Shown in pieces: positions 42,112 through 58,106 of a stretch of DNA of 64,000 bases (the first letter of the stretch is position 1; each line of letters begins with the position of its first letter). The notes beneath the pieces are model-generated. The model did not search any database and had not been told where the DNA came from. It saw nothing but the letters and a program-made list of their open reading frames with translations. This DNA is from Tropicibacter sp. R16_0 (GTDB lineage Bacteria > Pseudomonadota > Alphaproteobacteria > Rhodobacterales > Rhodobacteraceae), in NCBI RefSeq assembly GCF_017743935.1, contig NZ_JAGHRE010000006.1, positions 1 to 64,000 on the forward strand, given 5' to 3'. The translations under genes and the position numbers were made by a program.

Positions 42112-42807
42112 TTACGTGCGCGATTTCTCAAACGATGTCCATGCTTGTTCAAAGGCATCAAAATCGAACCCATCGGCACGGGCCGGATCCAGGATCAGCT
42201 TTTCGGTTTCAAGCAACCTGAAGATCGCTTGCTCAAGGTCGCCCAGCACCTCGGACGGAATCACTAGAGCACCGTGTCGGTCGGCATGAACCAGATCTCC
42301 GTCTTGTATGCGCAGACCGAAGATCGTCACCGGTGTGCCAATCTCTTTCACGTGGACGAAACCATGGCTTGGTCCGACAGAGCCCGCCACAACGGGAAAC
42401 CCATCCGGCAGATCGCCGAGGTCCCGCATCACGCCATTTGTCAACGCGCCGCTGATGCCAAAGCCCTTGTGCACCGTCGTATTGATTTCGCCCCAATACG
42501 CGCCGATGCAGTCGGGAAAATCCACATCCTCGACCACGGTCACGGCCGGGCCGGTTCCGGTGGCCATGTGCCGATAGTAATCCATGCGGCGTGCACGGAT
42601 CACATCAGGCGCCTCACTTGGCGGGTTCACGGCGGCGATCTTTGCTGTACGGGCGTAACCCACCATCGCACCAGCACCGGGATCAGAACACAGCATTGTG
42701 CCACGTGTAAAATCGTTGAAACCACGTTTGCCCTGGGCCACTTCGATGGCGTTGCAAACGGTTGGAGTGTCGACTTTACGCAGCAGGTCCAACAGGGATT
42801 GGTTCAT
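42112..42807 (-). CDS. RraA-like (HMG/CHA aldolase fold) protein, last gene of the 14-gene operon
   Basis: This 231-residue protein has the RraA-family GVMRD motif and a later HADRHGALVIP, which together bind the metal and 2-oxo acid in 4-hydroxy-4-methyl-2-oxoglutarate aldolases and oxaloacetate decarboxylases. In a catabolic operon such a protein usually splits a 2-oxo acid at the end of the pathway, so it may release pyruvate or a C1/C2 unit. It overlaps the alpha/beta hydrolase gene by ATGA, and no strong terminator was found after it. Confidence 0.85.
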   Translation of the reverse strand: MNQSLLDLLRKVDTPTVCNAIEVAQGKRGFNDFTRGTMLCSDPGAGAMVGYARTAKIAAVNPPSEAPDVIRARRMDYYRHMATGTGPAVTVVEDVDFPDCIGAYWGEINTTVHKGFGISGALTNGVMRDLGDLPDGFPVVAGSVGPSHGFVHVKEIGTPVTIFGLRIQDGDLVHADRHGALVIPSEVLGDLEQAIFRLLETEKLILDPARADGFDFDAFEQAWTSFEKSRT

Positions 42808-43499
42808 ATCATCTCCAGCCAGCGGGTCAGGGCCGCCGTGGTTTGTTGTGGTTGTTCCAGGGTCGGCAGGTGGCCAGCCTGTTCAATGATCTCCAACCGG
42901 CTCTGCGGCATAAGATCATGCATCAGTTCGTGCCTTGAAACCGGGCACAGGACATCGTCGCGCCCACAAAGAACCAGCGCGGCGCCGTTGAAGTCGCGCA
43001 GTGTATTGCTCTGGTCCGGGCGATCACGCAGGGCTTTGGACTGATTGGTGAAAACACCCGGTCCCAGGTCCATCGCCATTTCCATGCAAAGGTCCAGAAT
43101 GGCGGCGCGGCGTGGGCCATCCGTCAGATAGTTCGGCTTCATCTCTTCGGCCATAACTTTGCGCAGGTCGCCGCGCTGAACGGCATCAATCTGCGGGCCG
43201 CGTTTTGACCTGATCTCCTCCACCTCGGCGAGTGGGTTTGTATCCATCAAGGCCAGACCCATCACACGGGTCGGAGCTTGACGCAGGATTTCCATTGCCA
43301 CGATTCCGCCCATTGAGAGCCCCGCCAGGGCAAAGCGAGACGGGGCACAAGCCAACACCTTTGCGGCCAGTGCCTGCATCGTGTCATGTCCGCCGATCGG
43401 AACGGACAGGATGGGATACTTGCCAGACAAAGCGGCAATTTGCGGGGCAAACAGCCGCGCATCGCACATCATACCGGGCAGAAGAACTAGTGGCGTCAT
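42804..43499 (-). CDS. Alpha/beta hydrolase
   Basis: This 231-residue hydrolase has the nucleophile elbow GLSMGG (about residues 81-86), an oxyanion segment LLPGMMCD near the N-terminus and a late His in EQAGHLPTLE, so the Ser-His pair is intact, with Asp probable in CGRDDVLCP. It starts inside the stop of the MetE-like gene and ends inside the start of the RraA-like gene (both ATGA). Ester or lactone cleavage in the pathway of this operon is inferred. Confidence 0.86.
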   Translation of the reverse strand: MTPLVLLPGMMCDARLFAPQIAALSGKYPILSVPIGGHDTMQALAAKVLACAPSRFALAGLSMGGIVAMEILRQAPTRVMGLALMDTNPLAEVEEIRSKRGPQIDAVQRGDLRKVMAEEMKPNYLTDGPRRAAILDLCMEMAMDLGPGVFTNQSKALRDRPDQSNTLRDFNGAALVLCGRDDVLCPVSRHELMHDLMPQSRLEIIEQAGHLPTLEQPQQTTAALTRWLEMI

Positions 43500-44620
43500 C
43501 TGACCAAGGCGGCCCCTTCGGCAAGCGCCCCCAACTTGGCATAGGCGATATCCGGGTCCACCGCGCCAAAGCCTGCAAATGTGCCAAAACCACAATCAGA
43601 TCCAGCAATCACACGATCGGCACCAACGATACTTGCAAACCGTTCCGTACGCTGCGCGATCAATTCAGGATGCTCGACAAAATTGGTCGTGGTGTCGACC
43701 ACGCCGGGCACCAGAACCTTGTCATCTGGAATTTCCGCCTTGCGATCATGGAACACTGTCCATTCGTGCGCGTGTCGTGGGTTCGAGGTTTCGAACAGCA
43801 CATAACGGGATTTGGTCGACATCAATGTCCCAAACACCTTGTCCATGCCAATGTCGCAGCAATGCGGCCCCTCGTAGTTGCCCCAGCAAATGTGAACGCG
43901 CACCTTGTCTGACGGGACGTTTTGCAGCGCGTGGTTCAATGCCTCAACATGCATGTCCGCGATTTTCACGAACTCGTCGTCGGACAGATCTGTGAACAGC
44001 ATATGGCGCGACAGGGCGAGATCGGGGCAATCCAGCTGCAGATCCAGACCCGCCGAAACGATCGTTTCGTATTCTTCTTTCATCGCATCCGCGAGAGCGG
44101 CCAGATAGGCCTCGCGCGTTGGGTAGAAGTCATTTTGCAGAAACAGGGAAATCACCCCGGGGCTTGCCGCATTCATAAACCCGCGTTCAACCCCATGTTC
44201 GACCATCGCGGCCTTGAGGTTGTCGATGTCCTTCTGCAGCTCGCCCTGCCCTTTCGAGCGCACCTCGCCCACGCACATGGGTCGTGCATATTGCGGAGTT
44301 CCGCCGTCATCTGCCAAGCGTTTCAGAAAGCCAGGAAACATCTTGAGGTCCGCAGGCGCATTGCGTGGGCTGTCGCCGTCAAAGCCGGTATAGCGGTCCT
44401 TGACGTAGGTCGCATATGAGATCTTGGACGTTTCGCCGTCTGATACGATGTCTACTCCGGCCTTGGCCTGCTTGCGAACGGTCTCGGACACGGCTGCGGT
44501 CATAGAGGTATCAAATGCGGCTTGATCGAAGGGTTCCCCTCGCTCGCGCGCAAAGATGAAATCAACGACTTCCTGACTGCGTGGCAGGCTTCCTACATGG
44601 GTGGTTGCAATGCGGGTCAT
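43496..44620 (-). CDS. Short cobalamin-independent methionine synthase-like protein (MetE C-domain)
   Basis: This 374-residue protein covers only the catalytic half of MetE. The zinc ligands are visible as HICWGNYEGPHC and GSDCGFGT. Full MetE is about 750 residues with two related halves, so this belongs to the short MetE-like group, which includes folate-independent methionine synthases and enzymes such as epoxyalkane:CoM transferase that activate a thiol at zinc. The start at 44620 follows AAGGGAG. Sitting in a substrate-import operon, it more likely transfers or removes a methyl or thiol group of the substrate than makes methionine. Confidence 0.85.
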   Translation of the reverse strand: MTRIATTHVGSLPRSQEVVDFIFARERGEPFDQAAFDTSMTAAVSETVRKQAKAGVDIVSDGETSKISYATYVKDRYTGFDGDSPRNAPADLKMFPGFLKRLADDGGTPQYARPMCVGEVRSKGQGELQKDIDNLKAAMVEHGVERGFMNAASPGVISLFLQNDFYPTREAYLAALADAMKEEYETIVSAGLDLQLDCPDLALSRHMLFTDLSDDEFVKIADMHVEALNHALQNVPSDKVRVHICWGNYEGPHCCDIGMDKVFGTLMSTKSRYVLFETSNPRHAHEWTVFHDRKAEIPDDKVLVPGVVDTTTNFVEHPELIAQRTERFASIVGADRVIAGSDCGFGTFAGFGAVDPDIAYAKLGALAEGAALVR

Positions 44621-44691
44621 ATCATCATCTCCCTTCAAGTCTTGTTCCCCTACCGGACAAGAGGCCCGGTAGGGCGCATGCAATGTCGGCG

Positions 44692-45654
44692 TTACGCCCC
44701 CGTCCAGGTCGCGCCCGCCGGATCGTCGGTTGCGGTGATCCGATAGAGGCCAGCTTCGCCAGTCATCGAAGGCGCGGCACTATAGCTCTCGCCTGTCAAA
44801 ACCAGCGCGGTATCGCCGTTGGACAGGGTCACCTCAACCTCGTTGATCGTGATGCGCCAATGGCCGCTGGCAGGCATCAGAACCACAGGTTTGTCCGCCT
44901 TGACCTGGTCATCCACAGCTGAGCCTCGCGTGAGGAAATCAACCTCGAAACCGGGCTTGTCCTTGATCAAACCGTTTTCCCCGATCACAACGGCGGGTTC
45001 GTCCGCCGACAGTGCCATCAGGTCCCAGTAGCGGGCGACATATTTGCCGATCACCGCATCAACGGGAACCTCGGGGTAGGCTTTCAACTCGTCCTCGGTG
45101 AGCAATGGCATGGGTTGCACATTATGCGGCAACTCCTGCCCCTTTTTACTGTCGTACAGCACACCGTTGTTGCCCAGAACCAGGCCATGCGCCTGCGCAT
45201 CCTGAATGACCTGCGGGGCCCAGGTCACGCCGCCACCTGCGTCATCGCCACCCAGCATCGACATGATCATACCATAGTCCTGGCCGACATTTTCAAACCC
45301 GCGAAAGATGCCGGTCGGGATGTTGAAGATGTCACCCTCCTCGGCGATGAACTCTCCTGCGGTGCCATGCAGCCCCCAGAAGAACCGCCAGCGGCCTTTG
45401 GCGACAAAGAACACCTCGGCTGTGGTGTGGCTGTGCAGCGAGTTGCGGCATTTCGGTGGTTGCCCTGCCGCACCAATGTTGAACCCGATCTTGTCGGTGA
45501 TGTGGACGTGCTGATCGGGGCTTTCACTGACGCCGCCACCGATGATGGTAAAGTTCTCTTTCTGGTCCGAGCCCGGTGTATGGGCGTCGATGAACGCGGT
45601 TTTACAAGGTTTCAAATCGCCATAGCGGACGATGCGGCTTTCGATTGTGCTCAT
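44692..45654 (-). CDS. Two-domain cupin protein
   Basis: This 320-residue protein has a metal-type cupin motif (HSHTTAEVFFVAKGRW, about residues 73-88) in its first barrel and a second, more degenerate barrel (about 210-310) lacking the His pair. It could be a dioxygenase, isomerase or lyase; DMSP-lyase cupins have a different spacing of the same residues, so I do not make that call. A strong ribosome site (AAAAGGAG) precedes it. It lies 71 bases upstream of the MetE-like gene in the operon and just after an intercistronic hairpin. Confidence 0.8.
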   Translation of the reverse strand: MSTIESRIVRYGDLKPCKTAFIDAHTPGSDQKENFTIIGGGVSESPDQHVHITDKIGFNIGAAGQPPKCRNSLHSHTTAEVFFVAKGRWRFFWGLHGTAGEFIAEEGDIFNIPTGIFRGFENVGQDYGMIMSMLGGDDAGGGVTWAPQVIQDAQAHGLVLGNNGVLYDSKKGQELPHNVQPMPLLTEDELKAYPEVPVDAVIGKYVARYWDLMALSADEPAVVIGENGLIKDKPGFEVDFLTRGSAVDDQVKADKPVVLMPASGHWRITINEVEVTLSNGDTALVLTGESYSAAPSMTGEAGLYRITATDDPAGATWTGA

Positions 45655-45669
45655 ATCTTTTCTCCTTTT

Positions 45670-45699
45670 GATTTGGGTTTGATCAGATCAAACCAAATC
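45670..45699 (-). other. Long palindrome between the third SnoaL-like gene and the cupin gene
   Basis: GATTTGGGTTTGATC and GATCAAACCAAATC are inverted repeats of 15 and 14 bases with a single bulged G and almost no loop. No T run follows. It may set different mRNA stability on the two sides, or be a protein site. Confidence 0.5.
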
Positions 45700-45805
45700 T
45701 CCCGGCGGGCGATTGTTCAGCCGTCGGGCGCGCAGGCTGGCGCGGTGCGCGTGGTACCGCCGCACCGCCTGCCCGGCATCCAGATTTGAGATACGGAGAG
45801 ACACG

Positions 45806-46780
45806 TTAGAGATCACCGGTTTTCAGCAGGATCTGTTTCCAGATCGAGGTTTCATCAAACAGGGTGTATTCTTTACGCAGACCCCAGGGGCCAAATTCAG
45901 CCTGGCTGATGCCCAGCACAAAAACCTCGGCCCCGGTCGGCACGCCAAAAACGCCCCAGCCATCGTGTTTTCCGTGCAGCGTCCAACGGATCGCGGCGCG
46001 CGGCGGCATCATCGGATCGTCGCGGCCAATCTGGTGCTGGATCTTGAATTCTGCATTCGGGAAAGAAGCACGCAGCCCCATCCAAAACCGATCCACCGGA
46101 CCCCAGCTGTGCCCGGTTGTGCCACCGGGATATTCGGACAGGACGGCGCGGTCATACTCTGCCTGGATCGTGCCCATGTCGGCATTCATGATCCGGGTCA
46201 GAATGTCCGCGTATTTCTGGCCCCATTCGTTGTCATTGCCGTTGCCTTCATAGGGCCCAGGCTGCTCGTTTTCCGGCGTATATGGCTGAACACAGGCATC
46301 GGGCCCGCCCTCGCGCGCGATCAGGTCGCGGGCATAGTCCTTGGGATCCCAACCCATCTGCTGCACGATGGCGCTCTGATCGCGAATCAACCATTCGTCG
46401 TTGATCTGGTTGTTTATGGCGTGGCAGTCGGCAAGGATGCGATACACAAGCTTTTTGCCGGTCGCTTTACCATAAACACCGTCACCCATATGCGTCGCGG
46501 TGGACAGCAGGCGGTGCGACGAAAGCATGCCTTCTTCGGGAGTGCCCGACCAGATCACATCTTCACCCAATAAGGTACGATCCGGAAACTCGGCAAGGGT
46601 CGCCATCGTGGCAGCAATAACCCCCTGATTGCCAACCACCACCGATGCGGGTGAACGCACCACAATATCCGGCGCGTAGTAGTGGTGCAGGGTGGCAATA
46701 CCACGATCCTCCCAAATCTCTTTGGTAATCCCGATGATATAGTCCGGGAAATCTTTGAATTTGGGATCAAATCCCTTCAT
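45806..46780 (-). CDS. NTF2/SnoaL-like protein 1 (two domains)
   Basis: This 324-residue protein has two SnoaL-type (cone-shaped alpha+beta) halves, the second with VFGVPTGAEV in the place of the GIAPTGK motif of its relatives. SnoaL-like folds hold cyclases, isomerases, dehydratases and hydroxylases. The ATG at 46780 is preferred to one three codons upstream because it has a proper ribosome site (GAAGG) and overlaps the LacI stop by ATGA. Its function in this operon is unknown; three further relatives lie in the same locus. Confidence 0.78.
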   Translation of the reverse strand: MKGFDPKFKDFPDYIIGITKEIWEDRGIATLHHYYAPDIVVRSPASVVVGNQGVIAATMATLAEFPDRTLLGEDVIWSGTPEEGMLSSHRLLSTATHMGDGVYGKATGKKLVYRILADCHAINNQINDEWLIRDQSAIVQQMGWDPKDYARDLIAREGGPDACVQPYTPENEQPGPYEGNGNDNEWGQKYADILTRIMNADMGTIQAEYDRAVLSEYPGGTTGHSWGPVDRFWMGLRASFPNAEFKIQHQIGRDDPMMPPRAAIRWTLHGKHDGWGVFGVPTGAEVFVLGISQAEFGPWGLRKEYTLFDETSIWKQILLKTGDL

Positions 46781-47796
46781 GTCTTCCATCCTTCAGGTAT
46801 GCGGGCCGAGCCGCGAACAATCAGCGGTCCGTCAATCTCAACCCTGCGGGGGCGAGCATCGGCGTCCTCGATCTTGCTGAGCAGAATATCCACCGTTTCC
46901 GCGACCATGCGGTTGGCAGGCTGTCGAATTGTGGTCAGGTTGTAGGCTGGCCAAGAGGCAACGGTTACGTCGTCGTATCCAATGACTGAAACGTCCTGAG
47001 GAACCTTCAAGTCCATTTCGAACCGCAGCGTGTCCATCACGGAAATGGCCATATGATCGTTGGCCACAAAAACAGCATCCGGCGGGTCGGTTTCGAACAT
47101 CCTAAGCGTGGCTTGTCGGGCTTCTTCGGACAGAAAATTCCCGACCTCGCGGGCGTGCAACTCAACGCCAGCTTCATTCAGCGATGCAACGAACCCGGCT
47201 TCGCGATCCCGCTGGGTCGATGCACCTTCCCATCCGGCGATGTAGCCGATCTTCCTGTGCCCACCAGCCAATAGGAATTCGGCGGCCTTTCGTCCCCCGG
47301 CGATGTTGTCTGATGTCACCGACGACATCGCAGTGTCGTCTTGGGCTCGGTTGAACAGCACCATCGGTACGCCAGCGGTGCGGCAACGGTCAGACAGGTC
47401 CGATGACAATGCGACAGAAGCCGCAATGATGCCATCAACCTGGAAATCGAGAATTTCCTCGACCACATTGTCAATATTGCCCGCTTGGTGCGACGCCATG
47501 AAGATCAGCACGTGATAGCCACGCTCTTGCAGCGCGTTTGTCAGCTTTTCTAGCGCCTCGGGGTAGAACTGGTTGTTCAGATAAGCCACGACGAGGCCGA
47601 TGATCCGGCTTTTGCCAGACACCACGGCACGGGCCAAAACGTTTGGGCGATACCCCAGTTCCTTGGCCGCCTTTCTTACTTTTTCCACTGTTTTCTTGGA
47701 CGCTGACGCCCCGGGCGTGAAAACACGACTGACCGCCGATTGGCTGACCCCTGCAAGGCGGGCAACTTCCATGGATGTAACTTTCTGCGTCGCCAT
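46777..47796 (-). CDS. LacI-family regulator of the SnoaL/ABC operon
   Basis: This 339-residue LacI/GalR-type protein has the HTH (VSQSAVSRVF) and a full PBP-like effector domain ending in GLIVRGSARIPEG-type sequence. It sits inside the operon it probably controls, overlapping the SDR gene upstream and the SnoaL gene downstream by ATGA. Two palindromes of the form TGCANNCGNNTGCA stand between the operon and the divergent SnoaL/amidohydrolase pair and are likely its operators. The effector is unknown. Confidence 0.88.
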   Translation of the reverse strand: MATQKVTSMEVARLAGVSQSAVSRVFTPGASASKKTVEKVRKAAKELGYRPNVLARAVVSGKSRIIGLVVAYLNNQFYPEALEKLTNALQERGYHVLIFMASHQAGNIDNVVEEILDFQVDGIIAASVALSSDLSDRCRTAGVPMVLFNRAQDDTAMSSVTSDNIAGGRKAAEFLLAGGHRKIGYIAGWEGASTQRDREAGFVASLNEAGVELHAREVGNFLSEEARQATLRMFETDPPDAVFVANDHMAISVMDTLRFEMDLKVPQDVSVIGYDDVTVASWPAYNLTTIRQPANRMVAETVDILLSKIEDADARPRRVEIDGPLIVRGSARIPEGWKT

Positions 47797-48563
47797 CAGT
47801 CTGCCGTCCAACCTCCGTCCACCATCAAGGCCGTACCGGTCACCAATGCAGACGCATCAGATGCCAGATAGACGACAGCCCCCATGATATCCTCGATCTC
47901 TCCAGGGCGGCCCAGCTTGATCTTGTCCAAAATCCACGAGCGCTTGTCAGGGTCGTCAAACGTCGATCTGGTCAGGTCTGTCAGGATAAAGGTGGGGCAG
48001 ATCGTGTTGACGCGGATTTTTGCAGGCCCGAATTCCAGCGCCATCGCCTTGGAGAACCCTTCGACCGCGAACTTCGACGCGCAATAGACCGCACGCTCGC
48101 GACCACCGACATGGCCCATCTGGCTGGAGATGTTGATCAGTGACCCTGGGCGTCCTGCATCGAGCAAACCTTTGGCAACGGCCTGGGTCAGAAAATAGGC
48201 ACCTTTGACATTCACCCCCATAACGGCGTCGAAATCCTCCGGCTGCGTATCGACCGCCTTACCGTGACGGGCCAGTCCCGCCGAGTTCAGCAGAATGTCG
48301 AACGGCCCATTCTGCGCCACGGCTTCAGTTGTTGCGGCCACGTCCGAAACATCCAGCTCCAGAGCCTCTGCCAACCACCCCCGCGCCGACATTTCCTGCG
48401 CGATGTCTTGCAGCGCATCTTTGCGACGCGCTGCCAATGTGACCTCAGCACCATGTTCCGCCAGCGCCACGGCACAGGCCATGCCGATGCCGGACGAAGC
48501 TCCGGCAACCAACGCGCACTTGCCGCTCAAGTTGAAACTGGGGGTGCTGGGGAATTGGGGCAT
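47796..48563 (-). CDS. SDR-family oxidoreductase of the SnoaL/ABC operon
   Basis: This 255-residue SDR has the cofactor loop GASSGIGMACAV, then NSAGLARHG in place of NNAG, and the catalytic YxxxK in YCASK. The start at 48563 sits one base after the TGA of the second SnoaL-like gene. It overlaps the LacI gene downstream by ATGA. It probably acts on a hydroxyl or keto group of the operon's substrate, but which one cannot be read from the sequence. Confidence 0.87.
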   Translation of the reverse strand: MPQFPSTPSFNLSGKCALVAGASSGIGMACAVALAEHGAEVTLAARRKDALQDIAQEMSARGWLAEALELDVSDVAATTEAVAQNGPFDILLNSAGLARHGKAVDTQPEDFDAVMGVNVKGAYFLTQAVAKGLLDAGRPGSLINISSQMGHVGGRERAVYCASKFAVEGFSKAMALEFGPAKIRVNTICPTFILTDLTRSTFDDPDKRSWILDKIKLGRPGEIEDIMGAVVYLASDASALVTGTALMVDGGWTAD

Positions 48564-48564
48564 A

Positions 48565-49617: not shown

Positions 49618-49683
49618 GGTCTTCTTCTGATTACAAATGTCCCGAGGCGCGCGAGGGGATGACCCCTCGCCCCAAACCTGTCT

Positions 49684-51015: not shown

Positions 51016-51038
51016 TTTCTCGTCCTCGTTTGTCGGGC

Positions 51039-51569
51039 TCAATTTTCGGGCCGCGGCGGGGTCTTCTCGCCACGGTCAAATGCTTCCCAGCCCTGGCCGT
51101 TGAACAGATCAACGCCAAGCTGAGCGGCAACATGGGCGAAATCGACGTTCACCCAGTTGTCGACAATCTTTCCATCCACGACTTTCCAAAAGTCCATGTA
51201 CCGGATTTCCACCCGCTTTCCGGTGGGCGCGATGCCAAGAAACTCGCCTGAGTGGGTGGCTTCCTGACGGCCAAAAGCGGCGGCCCATTCGCCCATGTAA
51301 AGGCGCGCCTCATCGATGCAGGTCTTGTCGCTGAATGCCGCCTGAAACGGACGCTGCCAGTTGTCTTGGAACTCTTGCAAGCCGGTCTTGGTGCCGCAGC
51401 CCTGGTTCCCCATCCAGCGGAAACCCTGAGTGAAGAACTCGCCGATGTCATCGATACGGTGGTCATTCAGACCGTCCACCATGCCTTCGATCACGGCGCG
51501 GGTCTCTTCGGTTTTGCTCATGTCCGTGTCGCGGGTTAACACGGCCTGTTCGGGGCGGGATCCTTTCAT
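51039..51569 (-). CDS. NTF2/SnoaL-like protein 3 (one domain)
   Basis: This 176-residue single-domain protein matches the C-terminal halves of SnoaL-like proteins 2 and 4: [18 protein letters not shown] and [17 protein letters not shown]. Its start at 51569 has an excellent ribosome site (GAAAGGAG). It lies between the permease genes and the HpsN/HisD-like gene (23 bases apart). It may be a partner subunit or an independent enzyme; no function can be fixed. Confidence 0.78.
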
Positions 51570-51693
51570 CGGGATACTCCTTTCAAGATGCGTTGGGATT
51601 GGTCTGGGATCAGCTCGCACCGATCCAGAAAATCCCTGGGCATCCTGTTGAGAGCAGGGTGGCGCCCCATCGCGCCATGCCGGGCGGTTGAAC

Positions 51694-52575
51694 TCATCCC
51701 TTCACTGCCCCTGCGGTCAGACCAGATACAATCTGGCGCTGGAAAAACAGGATCAGCACGAACAGAGGCGCTGTCACCGAGACCACCGAGGCCACCGCAT
51801 ACATTACCTTGCCTTCAACCTGGGTGGTGCCCATGAAGCTGTTGATGGCCGGGATGATGGTCTCGTTCTCTTCGCTCAACAGCATCACCGCGACGGTAAA
51901 GTCGTTGTAGGCGAGCAGGAAGCTGAACAGACCAGTGGTGATCACGCCGGGCCACATGACCGGGACGATCACATGCCAGAAGGCCTGGAACCGGGTGCAG
52001 CCATCGACCATGGCGCTTTCGTCCATGTCCTTGGGAATGTTCTTGAAGAACGAATGCAGCATCCACAGGGTGAACGGCTGGTTGATCGCCACAAGCACAA
52101 TGATTGTTGTCGGCAGGATGCCCCAGACGTTCCACTCAAAGAACCAAAGCAGGTAACCGGATACGAGCGTCATATGTGGCATTGCACGAAAGATCAGCGC
52201 GGCCATCAGGATCCAAAAGGCATATTTGAACCCCGACCGCGCCAGCGCATATCCACCCAGCGTGCCGAAGGTCAAAGAGATCACCACCGTAAAGAACACG
52301 ACGATGCCGGTGTTCTTGAAGTTGAACCAGAAATCTTCGAGCACCCAGGCACCATAGTACCCTTGGCCGGTAAAGGCCCCGCCTGTTTGTTCGATGGTGT
52401 TGGTTCCCCACAATGCATTCGTCCAGTCCGCCTTGGACAGGAAGTCCGCCTGCACCTTGAAGCTTCCCCAGAAGGTCCAGAAGAAAGGGAATGCTGCGAG
52501 GATCAACCAGAATGCAACAAAGGCGTAAGAGAACAGTTTCAGCGGTGTCATGCGGGATTGTGCTTTGGTCGCCAT
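51694..52575 (-). CDS. ABC transporter permease, MalG type
   Basis: This 293-residue membrane protein has six expected transmembrane segments and the EAA loop in SAMVDGCTRFQAFWHVIVPVM, where Gly-Cys-Thr stands in the usual ATPase-coupling position. It pairs with the MalF-type permease gene ten bases upstream. It belongs to carbohydrate-type (CUT1) importers, which bring in sugars, glycerol-3-phosphate and small polyols. The gene ends about 125 bases from SnoaL-like gene 3. Confidence 0.9.
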   Translation of the reverse strand: MATKAQSRMTPLKLFSYAFVAFWLILAAFPFFWTFWGSFKVQADFLSKADWTNALWGTNTIEQTGGAFTGQGYYGAWVLEDFWFNFKNTGIVVFFTVVISLTFGTLGGYALARSGFKYAFWILMAALIFRAMPHMTLVSGYLLWFFEWNVWGILPTTIIVLVAINQPFTLWMLHSFFKNIPKDMDESAMVDGCTRFQAFWHVIVPVMWPGVITTGLFSFLLAYNDFTVAVMLLSEENETIIPAINSFMGTTQVEGKVMYAVASVVSVTAPLFVLILFFQRQIVSGLTAGAVKG

Positions 52576-52585
52576 GATCTTGTCC

Positions 52586-53617
52586 TCAGTGAGATTTGCG
52601 GGTGAAGTCGCGCCAGGTGCGGATCAGCACAGGCATCATCAGGATGACCACAAGGAAGATGGTGATCAGGGACGTTGCACCGGCTGAACCATAGAGTGGA
52701 TTGCCGCTTTCGCGCAGGTCGTTGAAGATGATCCAGCTGAGCGAGCGGGCATGCGCCTCGGCCGAGAAACTGACGATCGGCTCAAAGACCCGTAGGTTGT
52801 CCATGATCAGCATCAGCGTCACGAAGGTGACCAAAGGCATCAGGTGGGGCACGATCACATGGACCATGCGCTGCCACTTGCTGGCACCATCGATCTGAGC
52901 CGCTTCCATTGTGTCTTCGGGTACGGTCTGCAGCCCGGCATAGAAGGTGATGAAGCTGAACGGCAGCGTGTGCCAGACACCATAGACCATCAACATGAAC
53001 CACATCAGCGGTGTCGACGCCTTGAGGCTGAGCGACGGATCATCAAACACGTTCTGAATCGTCGCACCAATGACCCCGTCGCCATCAACCATCCAGAACA
53101 GGATCAGCGAGCCAACCAGCGGAGTGACCAGGAATGGCAACAGCGAGACAAATATCGCGGGCCCTTTCAGAACGCGCGGCAGATTGTTTACCCCAACCGC
53201 AACGGCCATCCCAAGGATCAGCACAAGCGGGGTCACGATGAAGGTATATGCCAGGGTAAAAGCAAGGGCATTGTAGAACGGAAGGTTGTAAACCTTGTTC
53301 CCAAACTCGCCAAAAGTCTCTGAGTTTGCCCAGGCCTCTCCGATATCCGCGATCGCCAAATGAGAGCGGTTGAAATAGGTCCCGAGCCCGTTGAACCTGC
53401 CCAAAGGTGCCTCTTCACGAAGCTTTTGAGTGGCTTCGACGTCGACGGCTGTCGACTCCTTGCATCCGAACGGTCCGCAGTTTTCGGAAACGACAAGGAC
53501 CTGTTCGTGCTCGACATAGAGCGATTGAATGAAGACCGAGACAATTGGCAGAGCTATGAAAAGGATCATCGCTGACAGCGTTGGTAGGATGAACCAGAAA
53601 AAGGTGCGATGCTTCAT
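52586..53617 (-). CDS. ABC transporter permease, MalF type
   Basis: This 343-residue membrane protein has a large loop after the first membrane segment (residues about 35-95, holding CGPFGCKESTAVD) and the EAA motif EAAQIDGASKWQRM. The extra cysteines in the loop may form a disulfide in the periplasm. It is upstream of the MalG-type gene and downstream of the binding-protein gene, with a perfect hairpin in between. Family is clear, substrate not. Confidence 0.9.
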   Translation of the reverse strand: MKHRTFFWFILPTLSAMILFIALPIVSVFIQSLYVEHEQVLVVSENCGPFGCKESTAVDVEATQKLREEAPLGRFNGLGTYFNRSHLAIADIGEAWANSETFGEFGNKVYNLPFYNALAFTLAYTFIVTPLVLILGMAVAVGVNNLPRVLKGPAIFVSLLPFLVTPLVGSLILFWMVDGDGVIGATIQNVFDDPSLSLKASTPLMWFMLMVYGVWHTLPFSFITFYAGLQTVPEDTMEAAQIDGASKWQRMVHVIVPHLMPLVTFVTLMLIMDNLRVFEPIVSFSAEAHARSLSWIIFNDLRESGNPLYGSAGATSLITIFLVVILMMPVLIRTWRDFTRKSH

Positions 53618-53654
53618 GGTTATGTTCCCGGTCGATCATTCGAATTGAAAAGAG

Positions 53655-53676
53655 GGAGGCCGCTATGGCGGCCTCC
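53655..53676 (-). other. Hairpin after the binding-protein gene
   Basis: GGAGGCCGC and GCGGCCTCC form a perfect nine-pair stem with a four-base loop, 11 bases after the binding-protein stop and before the permease. No T run follows. Such hairpins often keep binding-protein mRNA more abundant than permease mRNA. Confidence 0.65.
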
Positions 53677-53686
53677 AACTGGGGCG

Positions 53687-54931
53687 TTACTGAAGGAAAC
53701 CCGCTTCTTTTGCGGCGGTGACATAAGCCGCTTCGACATCCGCCAGCGCCTGTTCTGCGCTTTCGTTGCCTTTCAGGAAGTCCGTCAGCTCGTTGCCCAA
53801 TGCACCGTGCATCAGACCGATCTGCGGGATCATTGGGTAAGGCGCGGCGCCACCGCTGGCCGTTTGCGCGACACCCGCTGCCGCCGCTCCGGGCTTGAAC
53901 CCTTCGAGCAGCCAGACCGCATCGTCATTATTTGCTGCCACCATTTCCGGTGTCAGTGCGCTGGCCAGTGCGGCAAAGGAAGCTTCTGCTTCCTCGTCCG
54001 ACACATTGGACGAGATGGTGAAGCCATCCCACCACAGGGTCGCACCGGGCCTACCACCGGGCTCAACCGACGGGGCCGCAGACAAAACAGTGTTCGAGGT
54101 CACGGCTTCGGTCGAACCTTCGTCGTCCAGAATTGGCGCACCGCGGGATCCCCACATGATACCCAATGCGGCCTTGTCAGCCTCCCACAGACCCTGGGTC
54201 TCGTTCGAGGCCTGGGTCAGGTGATCCGGATGAGCATATTCCGCCATCGCCTTGAGCGTGTTCAGAGCAGCGATCCCTTCGGGGCTGTTGACCGACGGCT
54301 CGGCGGTGCCGGGTTTGAAGAACTGACCGCCATGCGCCATGAACACCATGTTAAAGGATTCACCCACGTTCCAACCGGTCTTCATGTTCATCACAATCGG
54401 ATGCTCCATGATACCCGCCTCGCGAATGGCTTTTGCGGCAGCAATAACTTCGTCGTAGGTGGACGGAACAGTATCGATACCAACCTGCGCCAGGATATCC
54501 TTGCGCGAGAACAAGTGCTGCGAGTTGGCCATGAACGCAATCGCCATGACGTTGCCGTCGATTGTGACCTTAAGGTTGTCAGGAATATTTTGACCGTACT
54601 TTTCAACAAGGTCATTGAGAGGGCGCACAAGCCCGTCGTTCATCAACTGTGTAAGGGTCGCGTTTGCCACGATCACGCTGGTGTATTCAGCCGGGTTCGG
54701 TGTCAGGGCAGCGTTCATGATCTGACGTGCTTCGGTCGTGTGGTTGCGGCTGAACTCGGACGCAGCGCTGCCGCAGTTTTCTTCGGCAGTTCCAGCAACC
54801 GCGTGGATCGCGGGAAAGTCCGAGGCCAAGATGCGGATCGACTGCCCCTCAGGGCCGCAACCGGCTGCGAATGCCGTACTTCCCATGAGTGCCGTGGCGA
54901 CTCCTGCAAGAGCAATTTTCTTCAAGAACAT
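53687..54931 (-). CDS. ABC transporter substrate-binding protein, carbohydrate type
   Basis: This 414-residue periplasmic protein has a Sec signal peptide (MFLKKIALAGVATALMGS..., cleavage after AFA). The mature chain begins AGCGPEG and has the layout of CUT1-type solute-binding proteins (SBP_bac_1 type), with a hinge Trp-rich segment GATLWWDGFT. Two cysteines (in GCGPEG and ENCGS) could pair. The leader before the start contains two mutually exclusive hairpins, one next to the ribosome site GGGAGG. It should deliver the substrate of this locus to the permeases; the ligand is unknown. Confidence 0.9.
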   Translation of the reverse strand: MFLKKIALAGVATALMGSTAFAAGCGPEGQSIRILASDFPAIHAVAGTAEENCGSAASEFSRNHTTEARQIMNAALTPNPAEYTSVIVANATLTQLMNDGLVRPLNDLVEKYGQNIPDNLKVTIDGNVMAIAFMANSQHLFSRKDILAQVGIDTVPSTYDEVIAAAKAIREAGIMEHPIVMNMKTGWNVGESFNMVFMAHGGQFFKPGTAEPSVNSPEGIAALNTLKAMAEYAHPDHLTQASNETQGLWEADKAALGIMWGSRGAPILDDEGSTEAVTSNTVLSAAPSVEPGGRPGATLWWDGFTISSNVSDEEAEASFAALASALTPEMVAANNDDAVWLLEGFKPGAAAAGVAQTASGGAAPYPMIPQIGLMHGALGNELTDFLKGNESAEQALADVEAAYVTAAKEAGFLQ

Positions 54932-54941
54932 TAGATTTCCT

Positions 54942-54979
54942 CCCGTTAGAGAACGGGTGCATCTTCGAAGTCTGCACCC
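54942..54979 (-). promoter_or_regulatory. Overlapping hairpins in the leader of the binding-protein gene
   Basis: On the mRNA (minus strand) GGGTGCA pairs with TGCACCC (54979-54955), and CCCGTT pairs with AACGGG (54957-54942). The CCC of the two is shared, so only one can form. The second ends directly on the ribosome site GGGAGG of the binding-protein gene and would partly hide it. This is seen in the sequence; regulation by it is inference. Confidence 0.45.
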
Positions 54980-55015
54980 AATTGAGACCCGCTTTGGCGG
55001 ATTTTGCTTCAGGGG

Positions 55016-56065
55016 TTAGCCCCCCAAACGTGCCCCGGTTTGCGCATCAAACAGGTGGCAGTGATCGGAATTGACCTGGATCGAAACCTGATCGTCGATC
55101 TCGGCGCGGTACGCTTTGTCGGCTTTGACCGACACCAATGCGCCATTGATACGGACCGACACCATGGTGCTGTCGCCCAACAGTTCCTGCGTATAAATCG
55201 GCGCGTTTATCTCGCCGCCGCTATCGACGACACTTGCGTCCTCAGCCCGGAAGCCCAGGGTTATTGGACCATCTGGTGCGTTCAGTCCTGACACTTCGGT
55301 GTTTTGCGCACGGAACACGCCGCCCTTGATTTCACCATCGATGAGGTTCATCGCCGGGTTGCCGATGAAGCTGGCGACAAAGGTATTGGCGGGGGCGTCA
55401 TAGATATCCGTGGGCGAGCCGACTTGCTGGACCACGCCCTGCTTCATGATGACCACACGATCGGCCAGCGTCATCGCCTCGATCTGGTCATGCGTAACGT
55501 AGATGGTTGTCACAGCCAGTTCGTGGCTGAGGTTTTTGATCTGCGCACGCGTGGACACCCGCAGTTTGGCGTCGAGATTCGACAGCGGTTCGTCCATAAG
55601 AAATACGTTGGGTTCCCGCACGATGGCGCGAGCCAGTGCAACGCGCTGGCGCTGACCACCCGACAGTTCCGCGGGCTTCCGATGCAAGAAGTCATCCAGT
55701 TCGACCATTGCCGATGCGCGCCGCACTTTTTCGTCGTGCGTCGCGGGATCAATGCCGCGAACCTTCAATGGAAAGCGGATGTTCTCGTAGACATTCATGT
55801 TCGGATACAAAGCGTAAGACTGGAACACCATCGCAACGTCGCGATCCTTGGGTTCCATGTCGTTGACCCTGTTGCCGTCGATCAGGATGTCGCCCTCGCT
55901 GGCGTCTTCGAGGCCAGCGATCATGCGCATGGTCGTTGTTTTGCCGCAGCCTGACGGACCAAGCAGAACCAGAAATTCCTTGTCGGCAATAGTCAGGTCA
56001 AAGTTGTCGACCCCTACAAACGAGCCCCACCTTTTTCCGACGTTGCGAAGTTGAATCTCGGCCAT
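55016..56065 (-). CDS. ABC transporter ATP-binding protein, MsmK/UgpC type
   Basis: This 349-residue ATPase has Walker A GPSGCGKTTTMRM (about residues 37-49), signature LSGGQRQRVALARA, Walker B FLMDEPLSNLDAKLR, switch His in YVTHDQIEAMTLADR, and a C-terminal OB-type regulatory domain. It serves CUT1 importers. The start at 56065 follows GGGAGGG; a longer frame upstream crosses the operators. It is the first gene of the 14-gene operon, which is unusual, since the ATPase gene is more often last. Confidence 0.92.
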   Translation of the reverse strand: MAEIQLRNVGKRWGSFVGVDNFDLTIADKEFLVLLGPSGCGKTTTMRMIAGLEDASEGDILIDGNRVNDMEPKDRDVAMVFQSYALYPNMNVYENIRFPLKVRGIDPATHDEKVRRASAMVELDDFLHRKPAELSGGQRQRVALARAIVREPNVFLMDEPLSNLDAKLRVSTRAQIKNLSHELAVTTIYVTHDQIEAMTLADRVVIMKQGVVQQVGSPTDIYDAPANTFVASFIGNPAMNLIDGEIKGGVFRAQNTEVSGLNAPDGPITLGFRAEDASVVDSGGEINAPIYTQELLGDSTMVSVRINGALVSVKADKAYRAEIDDQVSIQVNSDHCHLFDAQTGARLGG

Positions 56066-56088
56066 TGAATCCCTCCCTGATGGGTCGC

Positions 56089-56106
56089 CGTGCATACGCT
56101 TGCAAA
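56089..56106. promoter_or_regulatory. LacI-type operator in the shared promoter, site 1
   Basis: TGCATACGCTTGCA (56091-56104) has the TGCANNCGNNTGCA form with the LacI-family CG centre. It lies 25 bases before the ATPase gene start. Its centre is 54 bases from that of site 2, about five helical turns, so a looped complex is possible. Confidence 0.65.
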
Positions 56107-56142
56107 AACATAGACAACAACGGAAACATCTGGCAAGCTTTT

Positions 56143-56160
56143 TTTGCATGCGTTTGCAAA
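56143..56160. promoter_or_regulatory. LacI-type operator in the shared promoter, site 2
   Basis: TTTGCATGCGTTTGCAAA is a perfect six-base-arm palindrome (TTTGCA..TGCAAA) around CG, the usual centre of LacI/GalR operators. It lies 63 bases before the SnoaL-like gene 4 start. Both directions of the divergent promoter region can be blocked by the LacI protein encoded in the operon; that link is inferred. Confidence 0.72.
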
Positions 56161-56223
56161 CGTGGAATCCCCGCTCGAAAACTCATACCAATGAAACAGT
56201 TAAGACACTGAAAGAAATAACGA

Positions 56224-57225
56224 ATGTCCTATGATGCCGAGAAAGAAATCGTTCTTGAGTACTACAAGACGCTAGACAATGCGGCAGAATCGGATGTCGC
56301 GCGCGTGGTGTCTCAGCACTGTGCGAAAGAGTACCTGTGGCGCGGCTTCCATCCGTTTGATGAACTGCACAGCGCCGAAGATGTAGCGCAGCAATTCTGG
56401 CGCCCCTTGAAGCACAGCCTGCAGCACCTGCAGCGCCGGATGGACGTGTTCATGGCCGGCAAAAACGAGATCGACGGATTCGCCTCGGTCTGGGTTGTGT
56501 CGCTGGGACATCTCATGGGTTTGTTCGACAACGCGTGGCTGGGTATCGCGCCGACAGGAAAGATGGCGTTTCTGCGCTATTGCGAATTCAACAAGGTCGA
56601 GAACGGAAAGATAACTGAAACGGCGATGTATTTCGACATCCCGCATCTCATGATGCAGGCCGGGTTGCAGCCCTTCCCGCCTCAGACCGCGGCGCACCTG
56701 GTTCAACCCGGACCTATGACGCATGAGGGGTTGATGATCAGCGCGCAACCCGCCGAAGAAGGCAAAAAAACGCTCGACACAATCAACACCATGATCTCCG
56801 ACCTCGGCCAGTGGAACAGCGACCTGAGCCTTGAGGATGAATTGCGCCGGACCTGGTGCGAAGACATGATTTGGTGGGGGCCTGCCGGAATCGGGGCGAC
56901 CTATACGATCGAGCGCTATGCAGAGCAGCACTCGGGTCCCTTCCGCGCATCCTTTGCGGATCGTTCAAAGACCAATCACATCTGCCGCATGGCCGAAGGG
57001 CATTATGGCGGCTTTTTTGGCTGGCCGAATTTCACTGCGCGACCCACTGGCGGGTTCATGGGGATGCCCGCCACAGACAAGGCAGGTGAATTTCGTGTTA
57101 TCGACATCTATCGACGCAAGGGTGACAAGCTGGCCGAGAACTGGATTTTCATTGACCTGCTGCATTTCTGGAAACAGCAGGGCGTTGATATCTTGGGGCG
57201 CATGGCAGAGGTACCACGCACATGA
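56224..57225 (+). CDS. NTF2/SnoaL-like protein 4 (two domains)
   Basis: This 333-residue protein is related to SnoaL-like proteins 2 and 3 of the locus: WWGPAGIG, GIAPTGKMAF and NWIFIDLLHFWKQQGVD. Like protein 2 it has two SnoaL-type halves. It is divergent from the ATPase gene across the two LacI-type operators, and its stop overlaps the amidohydrolase start (ATGA), so it belongs to the same system. The ribosome site (GAAAG) is weak. Function is unknown. Confidence 0.78.
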   Translation: MSYDAEKEIVLEYYKTLDNAAESDVARVVSQHCAKEYLWRGFHPFDELHSAEDVAQQFWRPLKHSLQHLQRRMDVFMAGKNEIDGFASVWVVSLGHLMGLFDNAWLGIAPTGKMAFLRYCEFNKVENGKITETAMYFDIPHLMMQAGLQPFPPQTAAHLVQPGPMTHEGLMISAQPAEEGKKTLDTINTMISDLGQWNSDLSLEDELRRTWCEDMIWWGPAGIGATYTIERYAEQHSGPFRASFADRSKTNHICRMAEGHYGGFFGWPNFTARPTGGFMGMPATDKAGEFRVIDIYRRKGDKLAENWIFIDLLHFWKQQGVDILGRMAEVPRT

Positions 57226-58106
57226 CCGGCTGGATCGACGCGCATCACCACCTTTGGGATCTTGAGGCCGTACACTATCCTTGGCTGATGGCGCGCGGGG
57301 TCGAACGGTTTTTTGGCGACCCGACGCCAATTCAACGGAACTATCTGTTGCACGAATTCCGATCCGAAGCTGCGCCTTGCGGCATCAATGCCTCGGTCCA
57401 TATCCAGGTGGGGGCCGAGAGTGGTCTGGACGAAGCCAAATGGGTTCAATCCATCGCGGATGCCAACCCGGACTGGCCGATTGCGCAGGTTGTGTTCTGT
57501 GACCTGACATCCGTTGACCTATCTGCCCAGCTAGACACGTTTCAGACCCTTCCGACCGTCCGAGGCGTACGTCAGATCGTTGGCCGAGCCCCCGGCGAAG
57601 ATGCACAAACAGGCACCAATACCCTCCTGGACGATCCCCAGTTTCTGGTCGGCCTACAGGAAGCCGGGCGACGCAACCTCAGCTTTGATCTTCAACTCAT
57701 TCCCGGATTGATGGAAAAGACGGCCGCAGTACTGGCGCAAGCTCCGAATACACGGGTCGCGCTGTGTCACGCGGGCTCGCCACACGACCGAAGTGCTGAA
57801 GGATTGGAACAGTGGACCAAGCAGTTGCGGCACCTGTCTGACCTTCCCCAGGTTACTTGCAAACTGTCCGGTCTTGGGATGTTCGATCACACTTGGACCG
57901 CAGACAGCATTCGCCCGATTGTGGATGAGTGCCTTGTGCAATTCGGCGCGGATCGTGTCATGTTCGGGTCGAACTTTCCCGTCGACAAGCTTTACAGCGA
58001 TTATGCATCCCTGATGAGGGCTTACCGTGATCTGGTTCCCGCCAAGGTACAATCGGCGGTGTTCAAGGAAACAGCTGCAAGTTTCTATGATCTTGCGGTG
58101 AGTTAG
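57222..58106 (+). CDS. Amidohydrolase-family (lactonase-like) metal-dependent hydrolase
   Basis: This 294-residue TIM-barrel protein has the metal ligands of the COG3618/Amidohydro_2 group: DAHHHLWD near the N-terminus, a middle His in VALCHAGSP and the late Asp/Asn in FGSNFPVDKL (usual Asp replaced by Asn). Relatives are sugar-acid lactonases and 2-pyrone-4,6-dicarboxylate hydrolase-like enzymes. It is coupled to SnoaL-like gene 4. The TAG stop is the last three bases before an IS5-family remnant, and TAG is also the duplicated target, so the natural end may have been kept or a few residues lost. Confidence 0.83.
   Translation: MTGWIDAHHHLWDLEAVHYPWLMARGVERFFGDPTPIQRNYLLHEFRSEAAPCGINASVHIQVGAESGLDEAKWVQSIADANPDWPIAQVVFCDLTSVDLSAQLDTFQTLPTVRGVRQIVGRAPGEDAQTGTNTLLDDPQFLVGLQEAGRRNLSFDLQLIPGLMEKTAAVLAQAPNTRVALCHAGSPHDRSAEGLEQWTKQLRHLSDLPQVTCKLSGLGMFDHTWTADSIRPIVDECLVQFGADRVMFGSNFPVDKLYSDYASLMRAYRDLVPAKVQSAVFKETAASFYDLAVS

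What the first reader, a model, noticed from the sequence alone, without database searches (positions are those of the whole stretch)
42112..58106. Sixteen-gene catabolic locus with four SnoaL-like proteins and no known substrate
A 14-gene minus-strand operon and a divergent gene pair share one promoter region with two LacI-type operators. The mix is unusual: a CUT1 ABC importer, an HpsN/HisD-like dehydrogenase, an SDR, a short MetE-like protein, a cupin, an alpha/beta hydrolase, an RraA-like protein, a lactonase-like amidohydrolase and four SnoaL-like proteins. Most neighbours overlap by ATGA or lie within 100 bases. Three of the SnoaL proteins share GIAP(T/S)GK and NW...D...Q.GVD segments. 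I know of no described pathway that uses this set.
Basis: partly seen in the sequence, partly recalled or inferred. Interest (0 to 1): 0.85.

Follow-up and report, generated by a model that had tools for sequence, protein, structure and literature searches.

The report
Possible sunscreen-degrading gene cluster
This is a conserved, locally regulated 16-gene uptake-and-breakdown locus common in marine bacteria; related loci carry genes for using serine, threonine or ethanolamine, so it may be how bacteria eat the mycosporine sunscreens of algae, which has not been tested.

Summary
Sixteen genes (14 minus, 2 divergent) encode a CUT1 importer, LacI regulator, HpsN/HisD-like dehydrogenase, SDR, MetE-like protein, cupin, alpha/beta hydrolase, RraA-like protein, amidohydrolase and four SnoaL-like proteins, with two LacI-type operators. 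The set is conserved: 59 of 65 full-length close relatives hold hisD plus at least three SnoaL genes; 136 of 292 Rhodobacterales genomes hold its marker.

It is probably not a DHPS pathway: HpsN's sulfonate-binding His126 is Met here, and the genome has separate HpsN-type copies.

New evidence on the substrate: among 194 SnoaL loci, some carry amine-using genes: L-serine dehydratase (17, all Vibrio-type), threonine dehydrogenase-Kbl (4 places), ethanolamine ammonia-lyase (1), and a HisD2-type gene with an amide hydrolase (11). Methyl-transfer enzymes recur. This fits mycosporine-like amino acids; a review says Vibrio harveyi was suggested to strip hydroxyamino acids from two of them. I propose mycosporine catabolism (about 0.5). 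No step is shown biochemically; papers listed in my searches described no such genes.

The parts
42112..42807 (-). rraA: RraA-like aldolase/decarboxylase candidate (231 aa)
   Evidence: PF03737 56.8 bits; below all listed NCBIfam cut-offs; an HpcH/HpaI-type aldolase stands in its place in other loci
42804..43499 (-). abh: alpha/beta hydrolase, start at the ATG overlapping the metE stop
   Evidence: PF12697; nearest NCBIfam is 3-oxoadipate enol-lactonase type, below cut-off
43496..44620 (-). metE-like: short cobalamin-independent methionine-synthase-fold protein; H-x-C and a later Cys align with 1ypx
   Evidence: PF01717; aligned with 3rpd and 1ypx
44692..45654 (-). cupin (320 aa)
   Evidence: PF07883; no PDB relative at E <= 0.01
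45806..46789 (-). snoC: tandem SnoaL-like protein (marker gene used in searches)
   Evidence: PF07366, PF12680; SnoaL-type fold by Foldseek on a model of pLDDT 68
46777..47796 (-). LacI-family regulator
   Evidence: PF00356 and PF13377
47796..48563 (-). SDR oxidoreductase
   Evidence: PF13561
48565..49617 (-). snoB: tandem SnoaL-like protein
   Evidence: PF07366 83.8 bits
49684..51015 (-). hisD1: HpsN/HisD-like dehydrogenase; His126 of HpsN is Met; E318, H319, D352, K353 kept
   Evidence: PF00815 440 bits; HpsN 8v35 E=2.4e-113; alignment
51039..51569 (-). snoS: single-domain SnoaL-like protein (open frame to 51620)
   Evidence: PF07366; SnoaL 1sjw E=1.7e-10
51694..52575 (-). permG: CUT1 permease
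   Evidence: PF00528
52586..53617 (-). permF: CUT1 permease
   Evidence: PF00528
53687..54931 (-). sbp: solute-binding protein
   Evidence: PF01547; weak PDB relatives, mostly sugar-binding proteins
55016..56065 (-). atp: UgpC/MalK-type ATPase; start at MAEIQLRNVG
   Evidence: PF00005; NF008653 over its cut-off; start checked
56089..56106 (.). LacI-type operator 2
56143..56160 (.). LacI-type operator 1, 54 bp from operator 2
   Evidence: consensus of palindromes in relatives TTTGCATACGTATGCAAA
56224..57225 (+). snoD: tandem SnoaL-like protein, divergent
   Evidence: PF07366; its Vibrio-type homologue sits near L-serine dehydratase
57222..58106 (+). amh: lactonase-like amidohydrolase, 4-base overlap with snoD
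   Evidence: PF04909; NF052480 119 bits, below its 400 cut-off; amh next to snoD also in Ruegeria conchae L002 and L233; in L123 it lies near other SnoaL genes

Best explanation
The locus imports and breaks down mycosporine-like amino acids (MAAs), the UV sunscreens of algae, corals, cyanobacteria and fungi. Proposed working order, all inferred: (1) the CUT1 importer takes up the compound and LacI is released from the twin operators; (2) SnoaL-like proteins, which have the fold of enzymes working on cyclic enolised ketones, hydrolyse the nitrogen substituents off the cyclohexenone ring (snoD the hydroxyamino acid, others the second amine), freeing serine, threonine, glycine or ethanolamine and 4-deoxygadusol; (3) the HisD-like enzyme oxidises the ring's CH2OH, which is next to a C-OH, to a carboxylate, the same local geometry as in DHPS and histidinol; (4) the MetE-like protein (a corrinoid methyltransferase in an anaerobe) removes the O-methyl group; (5) SDR, cupin and alpha/beta hydrolase open the ring; (6) the RraA- or HpcH-type aldolase splits the resulting tertiary hydroxy acid into central metabolites. 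Shown: gene content, conservation, operators, variant gene content. Inferred: substrate and every reaction. The MAA ring chemistry (2-methoxy, CH2OH on a tertiary carbinol, ethanolamine in asterina-330) is from recall.
For: Amine-using genes sit beside the same core. L-serine dehydratase (TIGR00720, 655 bits against a 345 cut-off) is in 17 of 194 loci, all Vibrio-type: 17 of 26 wide snoD-MFS loci (in one of the other nine the stretch ends too early), also annotated with the same neighbours on a Vibrio europaeus plasmid. In L175 and L180 that block is contiguous with the hisD/snoC/snoB or ABC/SnoaL genes. Kbl-Tdh (threonine) is at four places: L202, a snoD-MFS-SSS locus without SdaA; L206, between two SnoaL/ABC modules; L020/L235, where the genes look broken; L075, further off. 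Threonine was on my list of expected amines before that scan. In the anaerobe locus L070 EutB starts 34 bases after snoC, and a URO-D/B12-binding protein shares an apparent operon with snoB. A HisD2-type gene and an amide hydrolase occur together in 11 of 194 loci, either alone in 2 and 2, neither in 179, across Alpha- and Gammaproteobacteria, Deinococcus and Priestia; 10 of the 11 also hold HisD1. Mycosporine-glutaminol (amino alcohol plus amide) would need both. In Ensifer L008, with no HisD in its 33 kb, 3-oxo-tetronate kinase and its partner appear. A review states that Vibrio harveyi was suggested to hydrolyse the hydroxyamino acids of shinorine and porphyra-334 (PMC3083659, passages).
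Against: No biochemistry. The SdaA link may be one evolutionary event in one family, and 9 of the 26 loci do not show it. Kbl-Tdh is a common pair: if every genome had one copy, about 0.9 would be expected in the 3.98 Mb scanned (P of 4 or more = 0.0135), so it is modest; L020's copy is broken, L075's is 4 kb beyond rraA on the other strand. EutBC rests on one MAG. Glycine is the commonest MAA amine (recall), yet GcvP and LtaE gave 0 of 194. Sarcosine oxidase (L007, L210: one species) and a DMSO-reductase-like complex beside snoC (L106, L110, L114, L243, L244) are not predicted by it. References for the amidase and HisD2 counts came from these same loci, and the Deinococcus second HisDs do not fall with the other HisD2 proteins in the tree. 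A V. campbellii chromosome-size record in the plasmid collection has no snoD hit. NTF2-fold enzymes hydrolysing such C-N bonds are not known to me.
Confidence: 0.5

Rival explanations
1. It degrades another amine-bearing cyclic polyol or sugar conjugate (for example an Amadori-type compound or aminocyclitol), by similar logic: remove the amine, oxidise CH2OH, cleave by aldolase.
For: The amine genes beside SnoaL loci only require variable nitrogen substituents; importer and LacI families usually serve sugars.
Against: Does not by itself explain the methyl-transfer enzymes (MetE-like; URO-D/B12) or SnoaL-fold proteins; no sugar kinase or deglycase is in the window locus.
Confidence: 0.2
2. It degrades a sugar acid, lactone or polyol without nitrogen; the amine genes nearby are coincidence.
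For: Fucono-lactonase-like amidohydrolase, RraA/HpcH aldolases, 3-oxo-tetronate kinase in L008, SMP-30 gluconolactonase beside L005, MR/MLE enzyme downstream in 10 loci.
Against: SdaA near snoD is kept in 17 Vibrio-type loci; EutB is in line with snoC; 11 of 13 HisD2 loci hold an amide hydrolase.
Confidence: 0.2
3. It handles phospholipid head groups (glycerophospho-serine, -ethanolamine, -choline), hence the serine, ethanolamine and sarcosine genes.
For: UgpC-type ATPase and UgpA-like permease; sarcosine oxidase in L007/L210.
Against: No phosphodiesterase family among the 16 proteins; nothing named UgpB among binding-protein relatives at E <= 0.001; HisD, RraA, cupin, amidase and threonine genes are unexplained.
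Confidence: 0.05
4. It is a DHPS (sulfonate) pathway built on HpsN.
For: HpsN is the nearest solved relative of the HisD-like protein.
Against: His126, reported to distinguish HpsN, is Met; the genome has HpsN-type copies elsewhere (C11 with His; C16 64% identical to it, its residue 126 not read); no sulfolyase family in the locus.
Confidence: 0.02

Closest known systems
DHPS catabolic cluster hpsRNOUP-suyAB (HpsN)
   Same: HisD-fold dehydrogenase with conserved E318, H319, D352, K353, plus an SDR gene
   Different: Lacks the His126 signature; no sulfolyase; SnoaL, cupin, MetE-like and aldolase genes are extra
SnoaL / AknH / IdmH polyketide cyclases
   Same: Same Pfam family and fold
   Different: Three of four are tandem two-domain proteins; they lie in an operon with an importer, not a polyketide cluster
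Bacterial hydrolysis of shinorine and porphyra-334 suggested for Vibrio harveyi (PMC3083659, passages)
   Same: Release of a hydroxyamino acid is what a snoD + L-serine dehydratase module would serve
3-oxo-tetronate (OtnK/OtnC) pathway
   Same: One variant locus, L008, carries a kinase over the NF043035 cut-off and its partner
   Different: The window locus has neither

Membership tests
DHPS 3-dehydrogenase (HpsN) | His126 recognising the sulfonate | tested here: not met
   Met in the window protein; Met or Leu in the nine other HisD1 proteins aligned; His in the own-genome C11 copy and CpHpsN
DHPS 3-dehydrogenase (HpsN) | Catalytic Glu318, His319, Asp352 | tested here: met
   All aligned
Biosynthetic histidinol dehydrogenase | Closer to the genome's own HisD than to HpsN | tested here: not met
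   A separate 553-bit copy exists at C14; the window protein is nearer HpsN in the PDB search and in the tree (one branch of that tree is void)
SnoaL/NTF2-like superfamily | Family profile and fold | tested here: met
   PF07366 over cut-off in all four; Foldseek on the snoC model (pLDDT 68)
SnoaL polyketide cyclase | Aldol cyclisation activity | not testable with these tools
   Context is an importer operon
Methionine synthase MetE | Equivalog score | tested here: not met
   Best 88.7 bits against 406
UgpB glycerophosphodiester importer | Binding protein related to UgpB | tested here: not met
   None of the 12 PDB sequence hits at E <= 0.001 is named UgpB; some names are generic
L-fucono-1,5-lactonase | NF052480 cut-off | tested here: not met
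   119 bits against 400
4-carboxy-4-hydroxy-2-oxoadipate aldolase (RraA type) | Equivalog cut-offs NF006731/TIGR02798 | tested here: not met
   25.4 and 24.3 bits against 179 and 304.5; fold family met
MAA catabolic pathway (proposed) | Consumption of an MAA dependent on the locus | not testable with these tools
   Context evidence only

The most novel reading that the evidence does not exclude
These loci are the genetic basis of bacterial mycosporine catabolism: a modular pathway in which SnoaL-fold enzymes strip the amino acid or amino alcohol from the sunscreen ring, a HisD-fold enzyme oxidises the ring's CH2OH, and a HisD2-type enzyme plus amide hydrolase in soil, plant, freshwater and some marine versions process the glutaminol-type side chain of fungal and terrestrial mycosporines.
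Probability: 0.4. Interest if true: 0.9.

Novelty: new variant of a known kind. Interest (0 to 1): 0.78.

Why it matters
If true, it would give genes for the turnover of UV sunscreens made by many phototrophs of the sea, corals and many fungi; bacterial MAA hydrolysis has been suggested (PMC3083659, passages), but I found no genes described in the papers my searches listed. Even if the substrate is different, the locus is a common uncharacterised catabolic system: 136 of 292 Rhodobacterales genomes hold its marker.

Tried and rejected
DHPS pathway: rejected on His126 and separate HpsN-type copies in the genome. Glycerophosphodiester uptake: considered because of the UgpC-type ATPase and the serine/ethanolamine/sarcosine genes; disfavoured. 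Betaine-lipid head groups and branched sugars: considered from recall only, not pursued. Taurine: Xsc lies near snoC in L106 and L114 and a TPP enzyme 27% identical to it in L211, but in L106/L114 it lies with a DMSO-reductase-like operon; left unexplained. Glycine: GcvP and LtaE references gave 0 of 194 loci, against the reading.

Controls in full: UbiI, Hcr and YibQ gave 0 of 194; PoxB gave 3 (24-25%, TPP-enzyme paralogues at the Xsc places); GcvT gave 4 (23-27%, paralogues such as SoxA). All are E. coli references, so diverged copies may be missed. Kbl also hit L043 at 35%, not counted as Kbl.

Literature: ten searches; I saw listings with abstract starts only, cut at 12 to 25 papers where more held the terms; none listed describes this gene set or genes of MAA catabolism; (mycosporine with SnoaL) returned 0 papers; bioRxiv is not held. 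Two papers were read in passages only.

The operator palindrome count (51 of 65) includes some unrelated palindromes and has no background estimate. The snoC model is poor over residues 1-90. In one search the ORF picked for the C16 copy (L215) was a wrong frame, so its row and branch there are void; one search gives its class instead. One search scanned a meaningless 20-residue stretch by mistake. ORF-based gene counts are slightly low (direct tblastn: abh 44, sdr 61, snoS 64 of 65); amh is near 0 there because the stretches mostly end before it. After checking against the calls I lowered the novel case from 0.45 to 0.4, because the Deinococcus second HisDs do not group with the other HisD2 proteins.
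Full report
What is there. The region 42112-58106 holds 16 genes in the orientation described. Family scans confirm the assignments. Fourteen minus-strand genes run atp-sbp-permF-permG-snoS-hisD-snoB-sdr-lacI-snoC-cupin-metE-abh-rraA; snoD-amh is divergent. Short overlaps and gaps are consistent with operons; the largest internal gap is 151 bases between snoC and cupin. Two LacI-type operators lie between atp and snoD. Genome-wide, the 18-base pattern with no mismatch occurs only here; two of the 10 places with up to 2 mismatches are in this promoter, with 0 for the reversed control. A palindrome of this design lies upstream of atp in many relatives (51 of 65 with any CG-centred palindrome, some unrelated; consensus TTTGCATACGTATGCAAA). 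The regulation is therefore probably local.

It is conserved. Among the 65 of these at least 20.9 kb long, hisD is present in 62, snoB 63, cupin 60, metE 58, snoS 57, sdr and rraA 55, abh 40, and hisD plus at least three SnoaL ORFs in 59 (direct tblastn gives slightly more for some). These are the closest relatives, so high synteny is expected. In a sample of 292 Rhodobacterales genomes 136 hold snoC (57 of 113 genera); in 398 genomes of the phylum 26 hold a relative. Annotated plasmid copies in Ruegeria, Paracoccus, Marinovum and Octadecabacter show nearly the same set, with one or a few genes missing or moved in some (for example no MetE-like gene in Paracoccus, no RraA in Ruegeria SCSIO 43209).

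It is probably not DHPS metabolism. The HisD-like protein is nearest to HpsN among solved structures. The paper on CpHpsN (PMC11382572; passages read) names His126 as the residue that distinguishes HpsN from HisD. In the window protein it is Met, and in the nine other aligned proteins of its clade Met or Leu, while Glu318, His319, Asp352 and Lys353 are kept. The genome carries four HisD-family genes: one with the strongest HisD score (C14), one with His126 (C11), one 64% identical to that (C16), and the window's. So this looks like a competent relative with a different substrate.

Variant loci point to an amine. I mapped relatives outside the close group. In an unnamed family whose snoD is up to 94% identical to named Vibrio plasmid copies, hence called Vibrio-type, 48 of 197 genomes hold a snoD-type gene. 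Of 26 wide loci around a snoD-MFS module (L124, L125, L127; L175, L179, L180; L186-L205), 17 carry an L-serine dehydratase, with full equivalog support for the one scanned; the L179 stretch ends too early to tell. A Vibrio europaeus plasmid is annotated with the same symporter, L-serine ammonia-lyase, MFS transporter, NTF2-family protein and porin. In L175 this block runs straight into abh-cupin-sdr-hisD-HpcH-lacI-snoC-snoB; in L180 it abuts ABC-snoS-snoB-snoC. L202, one of the loci without SdaA, carries Kbl-Tdh, the threonine pair, just beyond its LacI gene; the other loci without SdaA show neither. Ensifer L206 has Kbl-Tdh between a window-type locus (without a MetE-like gene) and a second lacI/snoD/ABC/snoC module. 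In Halomonas L020/L235 the pair lies past snoD but tdh is split over two ORFs and kbl is interrupted. In a Desulfosarcinaceae MAG, L070, EutB follows snoC after 34 bases, then EutC. In one Vibrio species sarcosine oxidase lies beside the SnoaL/ABC genes. Controls UbiI, Hcr and YibQ gave 0 of 194, as did GcvP and LtaE; PoxB gave 3 and GcvT 4, all paralogues at 23-27%.

A second variant carries a HisD2-type gene and an amide hydrolase. Over 194 loci the two occur together in 11, HisD2 alone in 2, hydrolase alone in 2, neither in 179 (Fisher P 2e-14; loci are related by descent and the references came from them, so this is descriptive). Ten of the 11 also hold HisD1; in Priestia the HisD2-type gene is the only one. 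In the tree the proteobacterial and Priestia HisD2 proteins fall together, but the two Deinococcus second copies do not join them. The loci span Pantoea-type bacteria, Novosphingobium, Roseibium, Alloyangia and other Rhodobacterales, Deinococcus and Priestia. An amino-alcohol side chain with an amide, as in glutaminol, would need these two activities.

A methyl group is also indicated. The MetE-like gene is in 58 of 65 loci. In L070 a protein with URO-D and B12-binding domains, the make-up of corrinoid methyltransferases, shares an apparent operon with snoB. Fifteen relatives insert a SAM-dependent methyltransferase between cupin and metE.

Reading. From established chemistry (recalled): mycosporine-like amino acids have a cyclohexenone or cyclohexenimine ring with a 2-methoxy group, a tertiary carbinol bearing CH2OH, and one or two nitrogen substituents: glycine plus serine (shinorine), threonine (porphyra-334) or ethanolamine (asterina-330); terrestrial ones may carry glutaminol. 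The review PMC3083659 (passages only) states that Vibrio harveyi was suggested to hydrolyse the hydroxyamino acids of shinorine and porphyra-334 to mycosporine-glycine, with 4-deoxygadusol also formed by bacteria, and that mycosporine-glutaminol occurs in terrestrial fungi and cyanobacteria. This one class of compound explains the serine, threonine, ethanolamine and glutaminol-type variants, the methyl-transfer enzymes, a HisD-type enzyme acting on CH2OH next to C-OH, and an aldolase for a tertiary hydroxy acid. It could also explain why one locus without HisD in its 33 kb (L008) has the 3-oxo-tetronate kinase pair instead: if CH2OH is not oxidised, cleavage would leave a 4-hydroxy-3-oxo acid for it. 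That last point is a single case.

Limits. The serine dehydratase may be one acquisition in one family. Threonine genes near SnoaL loci are only modestly above expectation: about 0.9 expected at one copy per genome in 3.98 Mb, 4 places seen, P 0.0135; P 0.0036 for three or more if 0.3 are expected close by (the 0.3 is my rough estimate). No glycine-cleavage gene is linked. Sarcosine oxidase and a DMSO-reductase-like complex beside snoC in L106, L110, L114, L243 and L244 are unexplained. V. harveyi itself was not tested; a V. campbellii record of 2.06 Mb in the plasmid collection has no snoD hit, but its other chromosome is not known to be held. Role assignments within the four SnoaL proteins are guesses guided by which one stands alone in Vibrio-type loci (snoD). 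The snoC structure model is confident mainly in its second half.

Verdict. A real, widespread, locally regulated catabolic locus; none of the papers listed by my searches describes its pathway. Mycosporine catabolism is the best-supported reading at about 0.5.

Noticed in passing
L106, L110, L114, L243, L244: A DMSO-reductase-like operon (molybdopterin, FeS, anchor) is followed directly by a snoC homologue, and in L106, L243 and L244 lies beside the same kind of LacI/ABC importer genes; Xsc is nearby in L106 and L114.
   Followed up: partly
window:58687-60780: RTX-repeat protein with a serralysin C-terminal domain and a readable HExxHxxGxxH motif, probably a secreted metalloprotease.
   Followed up: partly
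window:40050-41885: Dihydroxy-acid dehydratase (IlvD/Edd family) just downstream of the locus; probably unrelated.
   Followed up: partly
L026, L027, L029, L032, L038, L044, L046, L048, L052, L053: A mandelate racemase/enolase-superfamily enzyme lies just downstream of rraA on the opposite strand in these 10 loci.
   Followed up: partly
L038, L050, L057, L069, L079, L080, L102, L106, L109: A GMC oxidoreductase is inserted among the importer/SnoaL genes of some loci; solved relatives of the L079 copy include choline dehydrogenase and alcohol oxidases.
   Followed up: partly
L020, L235: In Halomonas the tdh-kbl pair beyond snoD appears broken: tdh over two ORFs, kbl interrupted.
   Followed up: no
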